Source: Clostridia bacterium
GTDB lineage: Bacteria; Bacillota; Clostridia; Oscillospirales; QAKW01
Direction of reading: 5' to 3'
NCBI GenBank assembly: GCA_017440465.1
Contig: JAFSHF010000006.1
Coordinates: 1 to 59,370, forward strand
DNA length: 59,370 nt
Both the position numbers and the translations under genes were made by a program. Positions 6,621 to 33,706 of this stretch are shown piece after piece. Position 1 is the stretch's first letter. The number at the start of each line of letters is the position of its first letter. The notes beneath the pieces are model-generated. The model searched no databases, was not told the DNA's origin, and saw only the letters and a list, made by a program, of their open reading frames with translations.

Positions 6621-6660
6621 ACTCTGTTGATAGAACATAAAAATGCATAAGGCTGTTTTA

Positions 6661-6780
6661 TGAAACTCTATCCTTTTGCCTGAGAGATTCGGCGGTTTGC
6701 GCCTTGCACCTTCGGCACCCAATTGAATGGGATTCTCCAGAGTCCTCTCCGCGCTCGGTCTTTGCATCCCAAGCGTTTCA
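6661..6780 (-). ncRNA. Glycine riboswitch (gcvT element), single aptamer
   Basis: Read on the minus strand, the leader carries the hallmark glycine-aptamer blocks in order: ACUCUGGAGA, GCCGAAGGUGCAAGG, CUCUCAGGCAAAAGGAUAGAGU. P1 is formed by ACUCU (about 6743-6739) with AGAGU near 6671-6667. An outer stem UGAAAC (6780-6775) with GUUUCA (6666-6661) closes the element. Only one complete aptamer is visible, so this is a singlet, a type known upstream of Na+:amino-acid symporters. It lies about 100 bases upstream of the AGCS gene and downstream of a strong promoter. Confidence 0.93.
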
Positions 6781-31290: not shown

Positions 31291-32544
31291 TTAGTTGTTG
31301 ATGCCGTGGTGGGCGGTAGGTGCCGATGCCGATAAGGCTTTAAAGGTGTAGCCGTTGGCTTTGCCCCAGGTGATGATCTCCTGCACCGCGTTGACGCTGA
31401 AGCTCTTGATATCGTGTTGCAATACCACCGAGACGCTTTTATTGGATGCCCCGCGGGTCACATTGCGTACCACCTGCGCAGTCGAAGTGGTCTCGCCTGC
31501 ATCGCCGCTGGAAACATTCCAATCGAAATATTGGAAGCCGCGGTTGGTCAGCTCGCGGCTCAACCGTGTCATAATGCCGGGGTTAAAGCGGCTGACCAGA
31601 TTGGAACTTCCGCCGGGGAAGCGGCAAAGGGTGGTTTTGATGCCCGCCTTCGCCTCGATCAGATCCTGCATATGATAAAAATCATTAAAGAAGGCATCCT
31701 CGCTGGCATAGATCTTATCGTAGTCGTGGGAGGCGGAATGGATGCCGATGGCGTGCCCTTCCTGCGCCATCCGCGCCAACAGATGATTGTAATTGGAATG
31801 ATCGCAAACAAAGAAGGTGGCCTTGACATTATTTTGTTTCAAAATATCCAGCAATTTGGCGGTATAAGGGCCGGGGCCGTCATCAAAGGTCAGGTAAATG
31901 GTCTTTTCTCCGGGGATGACCTGCATCGGTTCGGCAGGCGCGGCCACCACCGGTGCGCGAACCACCACCGTCCGCCGGAGTTCTTCGGCGGCATTGCCGC
32001 TGCTGTCCGAAACTTTGTAGGTTAGGGTATAGGTTCCTGCCTTTTCGGTGTCGACCTTGCCCTCGACCTTTACCGCTTGGGTCAGATCGCCGTCGTAATT
32101 ATCCTCGGCGGTAAAGCCGGGTTCTTCATAGTCTTTCCCGCGGAGGATGGTGATCTTTTCTTCGCCTTTCAAAGTCAAGGTAGGCTTGGCAGTATCAATA
32201 ATGTTGATGGTGCGGGTCTCCTTGGCGGATTGCCCCCATTTCTCGGCGGAGTAGGTGATGGTGTAGGTGCCCAATTTCTTAGCATCCACCGCCCCTTCGG
32301 TCTTCAGTTCTACCGCCTTGCCGTCCTTCATAAAGTAGGTGCCGCAATAGCGGGCGGAGGCGCCGAGGTCGGCGTATTCCTGCCCATATTCCAAGGTGAT
32401 CTCTTGATCGCCGTCGATGGCGATCTCAATATGAAATTTATTGGCAAAAAAAGCAATCGCCATTCCAGCGACCAGCAGCAAAACCGCCGCCGCGCAGATC
32501 AACGCGATCCAAACTTTCTTTTTGGGCATCTTCAGTTCAAACAT
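31291..32544 (-). CDS. Polysaccharide deacetylase with two Ig-like domains
   Basis: 417 residues. Cytoplasmic start, membrane helix (about 11-34), two DUF5011-type Ig-like domains (about 38-115 and 118-197), then a NodB domain with YLTFDDGPG (219-225), HSASHD (His 269, His 273) and RFPGGSSN, i.e. the metal-binding Asp-His-His set is intact. Likely removes acetyl groups from peptidoglycan or another wall glycan outside the membrane, the Ig-like modules acting as a spacer. AAGGGG lies before the ATG. Its leader is rich in hairpins. Confidence 0.9.
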   Translation of the reverse strand: MFELKMPKKKVWIALICAAAVLLLVAGMAIAFFANKFHIEIAIDGDQEITLEYGQEYADLGASARYCGTYFMKDGKAVELKTEGAVDAKKLGTYTITYSAEKWGQSAKETRTINIIDTAKPTLTLKGEEKITILRGKDYEEPGFTAEDNYDGDLTQAVKVEGKVDTEKAGTYTLTYKVSDSSGNAAEELRRTVVVRAPVVAAPAEPMQVIPGEKTIYLTFDDGPGPYTAKLLDILKQNNVKATFFVCDHSNYNHLLARMAQEGHAIGIHSASHDYDKIYASEDAFFNDFYHMQDLIEAKAGIKTTLCRFPGGSSNLVSRFNPGIMTRLSRELTNRGFQYFDWNVSSGDAGETTSTAQVVRNVTRGASNKSVSVVLQHDIKSFSVNAVQEIITWGKANGYTFKALSASAPTAHHGINN

Positions 32545-32719: not shown

Positions 32720-32741
32720 CCACATTTTATTAATATAGCAA
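32714..32741 (-). promoter_or_regulatory. Promoter of the deacetylase transcript
   Basis: TTGCTA (32741-32736), 16-base spacer, TATAAT (32719-32714). The -10 lies inside one arm of IR1. Confidence 0.65.
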
Positions 32742-32742
32742 A

Positions 32743-32886
32743 TAAAAAAAGAGCTTTCCACCCCGCGGACTTTACATGCCGCAGTAAACACCTATAAAGG
32801 TGCCAATGGAGAACTCTTTGTGAAATACAGCGTAAGTAAGTGAATGGGCGAGATATGTCCCAAACGCTATTAACGCTATATCGCTC
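32743..32886 (-). ncRNA. Candidate small RNA A with H-type pseudoknot
   Basis: A free-standing unit of about 144 bases with a strong promoter (32920-32893) and a terminal stem followed by seven U. Minus-strand reading: an AGCGU...ACGCU stem-loop containing UGGG-ACAUAUCUCG-CCCA; then a terminator stem GAGUUCUCCA / UGGAAAGCUC that encloses hairpin CACCU-UUAU-AGGUG; and a pseudoknot UUUAC-U-GCGG-CAU-GUAAA-GU-CCGC in which UUUAC pairs with GUAAA and GCGG with CCGC. No open reading frame of note. I could not match it to a known family (6S, SRP, tmRNA and common riboswitches considered). Confidence 0.65.
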
Positions 32887-32892
32887 AATAAT

Positions 32893-32920
32893 AGTATATC
32901 CAATTTTTCGAAAATGTCAA
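32893..32920 (-). promoter_or_regulatory. Promoter of small RNA A
   Basis: TTGACA (32920-32915), 16-base spacer, TATACT (32898-32893). Confidence 0.8.
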
Positions 32921-32959
32921 CATAAAGAATACAGAATAGTCCCACGCCTTATATAAAGT

Positions 32960-33038
32960 TATAAAATAAAGAGGGTCAGCAGTTCCCCTGCAAGCACCGA
33001 AAACGGCACTGAGGCAGGGCAAACAACCGCTGACACCG
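32960..33038 (-). ncRNA. Candidate small RNA B, one long hairpin
   Basis: Minus-strand bases 33034-32975 fold into a 60-base hairpin: GUCAGCGGUU with GAACUGCUGAC at the base (one wobble/bulge), CCCUGC with GCAGGG in the middle and GUGCCG-UUUU-CGGUGC at the tip, followed by a U-rich CUCUUUAUUUUAU. It lies directly after the S23-type gene and before RNA A. It could be that gene's terminator region rather than a separate RNA. Confidence 0.5.
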
Positions 33039-33043
33039 ATGAA

Positions 33044-33072
33044 AGGGTAACATATCCTAACAAAAATGTCAA
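33044..33072 (-). promoter_or_regulatory. Possible promoter of small RNA B
   Basis: TTGACA (33072-33067), 17-base spacer, TACCCT (33049-33044). The -10 is weak. It shares TTGACATTTT and GGATAT blocks with the RNA A promoter. Confidence 0.45.
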
Positions 33073-33098: not shown

Positions 33099-33449
33099 TT
33101 ATAAGTTTTCCTTTGCGGTTCTGCAGGATGCAATCAGCATCACGCGCAAGGACGTGCATTTGGATGAAAGTTTTTTATATAGTACTTCATCAATATAATT
33201 TGTTTTAAGTAATAATTCGAGCCAATAACCGGTTTCGCTGGCTTCTTTTAAGGCTATTTCAAGTTTGGAAATAAAATCCTTTTTTCCTTGAGCATAGTTG
33301 GCTTCGCGGATATTGGCACCAATGGAAGTGCCGCTTCTTCCGATTTGGTTGGAGATAATGGATTCGTGTTTGGATTTCAAGAATTTAACAAGATCGATAA
33401 TGTCTACTGAAAATTCCATTGAGAGTTCTGCGAGCTTATTTTCTTTCAA
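33099..33449 (-). CDS. Four-helix-bundle protein, S23/IVP family (second copy)
   Basis: 116 residues, clearly homologous to the protein at 17.7 kb (shared IGRSGTSIGANIREANYAQ versus IIRSGTSIGANINEANYGQ, and KKDFISKLEIALKEASETGYWLELL). The start codon is TTG at 33449, preceded by AAGGCGGTGAT; no in-frame ATG fits better. Function unknown for the family. It lies downstream of the tRNA-Met/Glu/Val cluster in the same direction, separated from it by the mini-hairpin array, repeating the arrangement of the first copy. Confidence 0.88.
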   Translation of the reverse strand: MKENKLAELSMEFSVDIIDLVKFLKSKHESIISNQIGRSGTSIGANIREANYAQGKKDFISKLEIALKEASETGYWLELLLKTNYIDEVLYKKLSSKCTSLRVMLIASCRTAKENL

Positions 33450-33490
33450 AGTATCACCGCCTTATACTATATATTACCATAAAATTTTGA

Positions 33491-33675
33491 TTTTTTCAAT
33501 GATGCATCGCCAGAGGCGATATGATGTTATGCAATCGCATAATGATGTTGCTCCCGATGGTCGCAATGATGCAATGTTTGCCTCGATATCATTAGCGAAG
33601 CGGCATCATTAGGCAATGCCGACATCATCAGCGAAAGCGGCATCATTTGCCAAAAGGCAAACATCATTCAAAAAG
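33491..33675. repeat. Mini-hairpin array with ATGATG/CATCAT linkers
   Basis: About eight units of 17-24 bases, each a short palindrome (ATCGCC-AGA-GGCGAT, ATGC-AATC-GCAT, TTTGCC-AAAA-GGCAAA and others) followed by ATGATG in the left half and CATCAT in the right half. The ends are near-inverted (TTTTTTCAATGATG against CATCATTCAAAAAG), so the whole block is an imperfect giant palindrome. Unit sequences differ, so it is not a CRISPR. Confidence 0.75.
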
Positions 33676-33706
33676 CCCTGATTTGCAAGGCAAATCAGGG
33701 CTTTTT
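33670..33706 (-). terminator. Terminator of the tRNA cluster
   Basis: 17-bp perfect stem (33706-33690 with 33686-33670), 3-base loop, with T run on the minus strand. Confidence 0.92.

What the first reader, a model, noticed from the sequence alone, without database searches (positions are those of the whole stretch)
32743..32920. Free-standing small RNA with a predicted H-type pseudoknot (RNA A)
A consensus promoter, ~144-nt non-coding body, stem with poly-U end, and an internal UUUAC/GUAAA plus GCGG/CCGC pseudoknot are all legible. It is not part of a neighbouring mRNA. It matches no family I could recognise, so it could be a diverged known RNA or a new class.
Basis: partly seen in the sequence, partly recalled or inferred. 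Interest (0 to 1): 0.72.

Follow-up and report, generated by a model that had tools for sequence, protein, structure and literature searches.

The report
Orphan RNA partnered with toxin domains
This small RNA belongs to a new RNA family whose genes normally sit on the opposite strand inside giant phage and mobile-element proteins, one directly behind each predicted RNA-cutting domain, so it is probably an RNA antidote; the copy here has no such domain beside it and may protect its host.

Summary
The RNA gene is real: promoter, structured body and U-tract are at 32744-32920 (minus strand), with no Rfam match. The H-type pseudoknot is not supported. In 13 relatives the basal stem, a second hairpin and the GCGG/CCGC helix covary strongly, while UUUAC/GUAAA does not, so the conserved 3' part is a three-way junction with an invariant GCAUGUAAAGUC loop.

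The relatives lead elsewhere. Most lie antisense inside ORFs of phage or mobile-element 'polyvalent' proteins, directly behind one LPD3-like domain; all nine distinct close homologues of that domain carry this RNA type. Starting from Pfam hits alone, 16 of 20 embedded LPD3/PBECR3 domains have an antisense promoter-stem-U-tract gene right behind them (control windows 20/342, codon shuffles 9/400). PBECR3, MuF_C and the LPD3-like domain each go with their own RNA motif. Codons over the antisense promoter are fixed (valine is GTC in 21/21; background 20%).

Best explanation: an RNA antitoxin (immunity RNA) for a predicted BECR-type RNase domain, as in type III toxin-antitoxin systems but nested antisense in the toxin gene. 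The window copy is an orphan; no domain was found in its 65%-complete genome. Inhibition is inferred, not shown.

The parts
32893..32920 (-). sigma-70-type promoter TTGACA-16-TATACT of RNA A
   Evidence: 11 of 12 consensus positions. Similar promoters (TTGACATTTTC-N7-TNGGATATACTA and variants) precede relatives L003, L004, L007, L048, L086, L089
32744..32886 (-). predicted RNA A transcript (~143 nt): two structured units, one promoter, one terminator
   Evidence: L045 shows the same layout with another 5' unit
32820..32886 (-). 5' unit of RNA A; hairpin predicted; no relative found; in L045 this place is held by a MuF_C-type RNA
32748..32819 (-). conserved 3' unit (three-way junction); P1 32819-32807/32760-32748, P2 32802-32799/32792-32789, P4 (GCGG/CCGC) 32783-32779/32768-32764
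   Evidence: 18 of 22 pairs with two-sided changes in 13 sequences, 0/500 shuffles
32769..32778 (-). P4 loop, core of the conserved GCAUGUAAAGUC motif
32740..32747 (-). U-tract of the terminator
   Evidence: sequence
32742..32843 (+). short open frame without a start codon, KKELSTPRTLHAAVNTYKGANGELFVKYSVSK*, reading antisense to RNA A; remnant of the polyvalent-protein linker that is intact in L002
32958..33070 (-). RNA B: second possible orphan of the same kind; long hairpin and U-rich tail, but -35/-10 look-alikes only 12 nt apart (probably decayed)
   Evidence: (z = -6.3); no relative found

Best explanation
RNA A carries, as its 3' unit, an RNA whose cognate partner is an LPD3-like, predicted BECR-type nuclease domain of polyvalent proteins of phages and mobile elements. 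In those elements the RNA gene (own promoter, 60-90-nt three-way-junction RNA, terminator) is nested on the antisense strand of the protein gene, at the C-terminal end of the domain. The RNA most likely works as an antitoxin or immunity RNA: made constitutively and folded into a compact structure, it binds and blocks the cognate RNase domain in the cell that makes or carries the element, as RNA antitoxins do in type III toxin-antitoxin systems. The window copy is an orphan that would protect against incoming elements with the cognate domain, or is a recent relic. Shown by comparison: RNA gene, structure, domain-specific association, nucleotide-level constraint, absence of the domain from the assembled part of the genome. 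Inferred: the domain is toxic, the RNA binds and inhibits it, the orphan is functional.
For: Covariation of the structure. All nine distinct close homologues of the domain carry this RNA, including G227 and G495, whose RNAs model R2 found without their being in its training set. Domain-first test 16/20 against 20/342 and 9/400, Fisher p ~1e-14. 13 of 16 named domain ends have an antisense RNA gene within -10..+30 aa; random placement gives 1.3, 0/20000 as high. Family-specific motifs: PBECR3 6/8, LPD3-like 8/9, MuF_C 3/4, none crossing over. PBECR3 RNA motif in two reading frames. Codon choice in linkers picked by peptide: GTC 21/21, ATA/GTA 21/21, third-base T 20/21. Orphans without the domain: window, L016, L045, L046, L047, L153, L161; L045 joins a 44-nt core identical to the MuF_C RNA of L152 with this RNA in one unit. 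PBECR domains are predicted RNases (PMC5512222); an RNA that neutralises a toxin by direct binding is shown for AbiF/RCd22 in Clostridioides difficile (PMC12373285).
Against: No expression or binding data. BECR fold of the cognate domain rests on a moderate model (pLDDT 70.8) and a weak match to the BECR tRNase CdiA-CT Kp342 (6cp9, Z 5.7; Foldseek had no hit with E <= 0.001). The LPD3 link is hhalign probability 88% and sub-cut-off Pfam hits. An antisense RNA could instead act by pairing with the mRNA. L150 carries the RNA type behind a domain the A6 profile does not reach. G000 is only 65% complete, so absence of the domain is weak evidence. The 5' unit of RNA A has no relative found.
Confidence: 0.6

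Rival explanations
1. Cis-antisense regulator: the RNA base-pairs with the polyvalent mRNA at the end of each nuclease domain and limits its expression (type I-like); orphans act in trans on incoming mRNAs.
For: Every embedded copy is fully complementary to its own mRNA by position.
Against: Complementarity alone needs no conserved loop, covarying three-way junction or domain-specific motif. The pairing region is in the middle of a 1000-4000-aa ORF, not at a ribosome binding site. The PBECR3 motif is kept in two reading frames.
Confidence: 0.17
2. The RNA is a partner rather than an inhibitor: it is bound by the domain and serves as guide, scaffold or cargo delivered with the polyvalent protein into the recipient.
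For: One RNA per domain, domain-specific motif, separate strong promoter.
Against: Orphan RNAs without the domain, one with two different units in one transcript, fit immunity better than a cofactor.
Confidence: 0.1
3. The window copy is a dead relic of a lost polyvalent gene; RNA A is transcribed by accident or not at all. (Compatible with the best explanation for the family.)
For: The antisense frame is cut to 34 aa without a start; RNA B next to it has a promoter-like site with a 12-nt spacer.
Against: RNA A keeps promoter, stem, loop motif and U-tract while the ORF is gone; L045 and L047 do the same in other families.
Confidence: 0.3
4. Small palindromic mobile element that inserts in frame into genes (like Rickettsia palindromic elements), or simply a coding-sequence relic with no RNA function.
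For: Early picture with three copies: homology stops at the palindrome ends and one copy lies in frame in an ORF.
Against: Copies sit at one place, behind one domain type, in all close domain homologues, with promoter and U-tract and fixed antisense-promoter codons; no copies scattered over unrelated genes were found.
Confidence: 0.03

Closest known systems
Type III toxin-antitoxin systems (ToxIN, CptIN, TenpIN)
   Same: A structured small RNA beside an RNase-type toxin gene; terminator-associated; inferred direct RNA-protein inhibition
   Different: There (from established knowledge) repeats of a pseudoknot lie upstream on the same strand and the toxin has a MazF/Kid-like fold. Here the RNA is antisense inside the toxin ORF, mostly one unit per domain, a three-way junction, and the domains are LPD3, PBECR3 or MuF_C in giant proteins
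AbiF/RCd22 of Clostridioides difficile (PMC12373285)
   Same: A small RNA neutralises a phage-encoded toxin by direct binding, in cis and in trans
   Different: Abi_2/AbiD/F (Cas13-related) toxin and its own abiF RNA motifs; only the paper's abstract and outline were read, which mention no RNA gene nested antisense in the toxin
Polyvalent proteins with PBECR/LPD3/MuF_C domains (PMC5512222)
   Same: The proteins in which these RNA genes are nested
   Different: A search of that paper's main text found no 'antisense' and no 'noncoding'
Polymorphic/CDI/MuF toxins with immunity genes and orphan immunity genes (PMC9086364, PMC5576092)
   Same: Domain-specific immunity and, from established knowledge, swapping of toxin-immunity pairs and orphan immunity copies
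   Different: There the immunity factor is a protein, typically encoded downstream; here it would be an RNA on the opposite strand

Membership tests
Type III toxin-antitoxin system | RNA antitoxin binds and inhibits a protein toxin directly | not testable with these tools
   needs binding and toxicity assays
Type III toxin-antitoxin system | antitoxin repeats upstream of the toxin gene on the same strand | tested here: not met
   RNA genes lie antisense behind the domain
Type III toxin-antitoxin system | pseudoknotted antitoxin RNA | tested here: not met
   the pseudoknot helix proposed here has no covariation support; another pseudoknot was not searched for
Any Rfam family | score above gathering threshold | tested here: not met
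New RNA family, type partnered with the A6 domain | P1-P2-P4 three-way junction with GCAUGUAAAGUC loop | tested here: met
   window copy 97.4 bits, 3e-27 (it is one of the model's three seeds); covariation
LPD3 (PF18798), for the cognate domain | Pfam match above cut-off | tested here: not met
   3 of 8 members match below the cut-off, best E 0.016; hhalign probability 88% to LPD3 hits
BECR-fold RNase, for the cognate domain | fold | tested here: inconclusive
   model pLDDT 70.8; 6cp9_A Z 5.7, rmsd 3.5 over 95 residues, next row 4.3

The most novel reading that the evidence does not exclude
BECR-type nuclease domains of polyvalent proteins (LPD3, PBECR3, MuF_C) commonly come with their own RNA antitoxin gene, nested antisense at the domain's 3' end, and bacteria and competing viruses keep orphan copies, alone or joined, as RNA-based immunity against injected effectors.
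Probability: 0.55. Interest if true: 0.95.

Novelty: new variant of a known kind. Interest (0 to 1): 0.87.

Why it matters
How makers of polyvalent, injected nuclease effectors avoid poisoning themselves is open; the 2017 survey of these proteins, as searched here, does not mention RNA antidotes. If the RNAs are antidotes, this gives matched toxin-RNA pairs for at least three domain families, a simple signature (antisense promoter plus stem plus U-tract behind a domain) to find more, and a form of orphan RNA immunity. The double use of one stretch of DNA, coding on one strand and RNA gene on the other, would also be directly measurable.

Tried and rejected
H-type pseudoknot: tested on 3, 7 and 13 sequences; support vanished as sequences were added. 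Known RNA: four Rfam searches, none. RPE-like palindromic element and pure coding relic: rejected after the domain-linked loci and the codon test. Exact pattern TTTACNGCNGCATGTAAAG gave mostly chance hits in ordinary genes; only L016 and L035/L002 were real. Promoter pattern with 3 mismatches mostly finds ordinary promoters. BLASTN and tblastn in phage and plasmid collections: no match for the RNA or (phages) the cognate domain. The promoter lies in one ORF phase in 20 of 21 cases, so a peptide motif might have explained it; the codon test argues against that. 5' unit of RNA A and RNA B: no relatives. Foldseek gave no confident match for the domain.

Full report
What is in the window. On the minus strand a TTGACA-16-TATACT promoter (32920-32893) precedes a ~143-nt stretch that folds far better than shuffles (z -4.9) and ends in a stem and U-tract near 32740. 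It lies in the gap between a minus-strand 417-aa ORF (31291-32544; polysaccharide-deacetylase-like by my reading, not tested) and a small ORF at 33099, and matches no Rfam family. So the gene is free-standing as described.

First relatives. BLASTN in 99 related genomes found the 3' half in one genome of the same genus (G004, 85%), and a pattern scan found a third copy in a Clostridia MAG (L016). A covariance model from these three found copies in four more genomes of the order (L045-L048). The 5' half of RNA A did not come along.

Structure. On 7 and 13 sequences the basal stem P1, hairpin P2 and the GCGG/CCGC helix P4 are supported by many two-sided changes (94.6% of cells paired, 18 of 22 pairs covary, 0 of 500 shuffles; slid controls 42-54% paired). 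The other half of the proposed pseudoknot, UUUAC/GUAAA, is at chance level. The GUAAA side is constant because the loop GCAUGUAAAGUC is constant; the UUUAC side drifts. The unit is a three-way junction. Caveat: A5 was aligned with a model of that structure, so absolute pair counts lean towards it; but R2 then found the G227 copy, not used in training, with E 2.6e-7.

The surprise. In G004 the RNA lies antisense inside a 2796-aa open frame, and the promoter-like sequences of other hits (L003, L004, L048, L086, L089) also lie antisense in open frames. Pfam shows PBECR3 or LPD3 domains ending where the RNA starts in L003, L086, L089 and L097. These are domains of polyvalent proteins, large multi-domain proteins of phages and conjugative elements; PBECR domains are predicted RNases (PMC5512222).

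Domain-first test. To avoid choosing by the RNA, all LPD3 and PBECR3 hits in 147 genomes of the order were taken. Of 20 domains embedded in larger frames, 16 are followed by an antisense promoter, a stem of at least 7 pairs enclosing 25 nt or more, and a T-rich tract. Controls: 20 of 342 windows elsewhere in the same loci, 9 of 400 codon shuffles, 1 of 23 on the sense strand (p ~1e-14). The criteria were set after reading the sequences, so the p-value is optimistic, but three of the four misses (L108, L116, L128) show the same layout by eye. Of three stand-alone domains (L121, L122, L129), two gave no hit and L129 gave a weak one (promoter 9 of 12, stem 8).

Several RNAs per protein. In long frames the antisense RNA genes recur about every 200 residues (L142: 996, 1199, 1418, 1624; L114: 221, 424, 623, 856). 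They coincide with ends of MuF_C, LPD3, PBECR3 and the LPD3-like domain (13 of 16 ends, random mean 1.3). In this set the ART domain of L140 has none behind it.

Cognate pairing. The domain in front of the window-type RNA in L002 was used as query. Its close homologues in G227 (64%), G495 (another order) and eight IMG/VR contigs (six distinct) all carry the window-type RNA directly behind it. PBECR3 RNAs share CGYUUYGGRCG (6 of 8), MuF_C RNAs share a GGC-AWUUGGA-GCC hairpin (3 of 4), and no motif appears behind another domain type (the motifs were read from the same data). More distant LPD3-like domains (L118, L133, L147) carry other RNAs.

Selection on the RNA gene, not only the protein. Linkers were picked by the peptide pattern [STI][IV]-x(5-7)-V[NK] without looking at the DNA. 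Valine is GTC in 21 of 21 (background 20%), the second residue uses ATA/GTA in 21 of 21, and the first ends in T in 20 of 21: exactly the bases of the antisense -35 and -10. The PBECR3 RNA motif occurs in two reading frames.

Orphans. The window, L016, L045, L046, L047, L153/L156 and L161 have the RNA without the domain on the stretch held. L045 has a single promoter and terminator around two units: a MuF_C-type RNA (44 nt identical to the one behind MuF_C in L152) and a window-type RNA. RNA A has the same layout with an unidentified 5' unit. L105 holds tandem antisense RNA genes of another type. This looks like the orphan immunity genes of polymorphic toxin systems, but made of RNA.

The partner domain. 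AlphaFold gives an alpha/beta domain (helices, then a sheet; pLDDT 70.8). The best VIA-align row is the BECR tRNase toxin CdiA-CT Kp342 (6cp9, Z 5.7, rmsd 3.5 over 95 residues; next row 4.3; BECR per PMC9086364); Foldseek had no confident match. This supports but does not prove an RNase fold.

Mechanism. Most likely the RNA binds and blocks its cognate nuclease domain, as RNA antitoxins of type III systems and RCd22 for AbiF do (PMC12373285). A domain-specific conserved loop on a covarying scaffold, one RNA per domain, separate promoters and joined orphan units fit this. Antisense pairing to the mRNA is the main rival. Inhibition, toxicity and expression are all untested. No paper found describes the arrangement, but the library holds open-licence papers only.

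Noticed in passing
window 32958-33070 (-): RNA B: long stable hairpin (z -6.3) with a U-rich tail behind TTGACA...TATGTT spaced only 12 nt; looks like a second, decaying orphan of the same kind.
   Followed up: partly
window 6658-6750 (-): Glycine riboswitch (Rfam RF00504, 64.9 bits).
   Followed up: no
window 33480-33705: Cluster of short GATGAT/ATCATT-type repeats ending in a strong terminator-like hairpin (18 pairs) next to the tRNA-Val/Glu/Met genes.
   Followed up: no
L105 (G014:C26:40200-43400): Tandem array of at least two near-identical antisense RNA genes of another type, each with its own promoter and terminator.
   Followed up: partly
L016 2381-2700: The orphan RNA follows a second, partial copy of what looks like a tRNA/tmRNA 3' end (GAATCTCGCCGTCTCCGCCA), as at an integration site.
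   Followed up: no
L114 / L151 (G006:C15): Behind MuF_C the antisense RNA region holds two similar ~60-nt units in tandem.
   Followed up: no
L153, L156, L161 (IMG/VR contigs): Viral contigs with the window-type RNA but no cognate domain on the stretch held; possible counter-immunity carried by competing viruses.
   Followed up: partly
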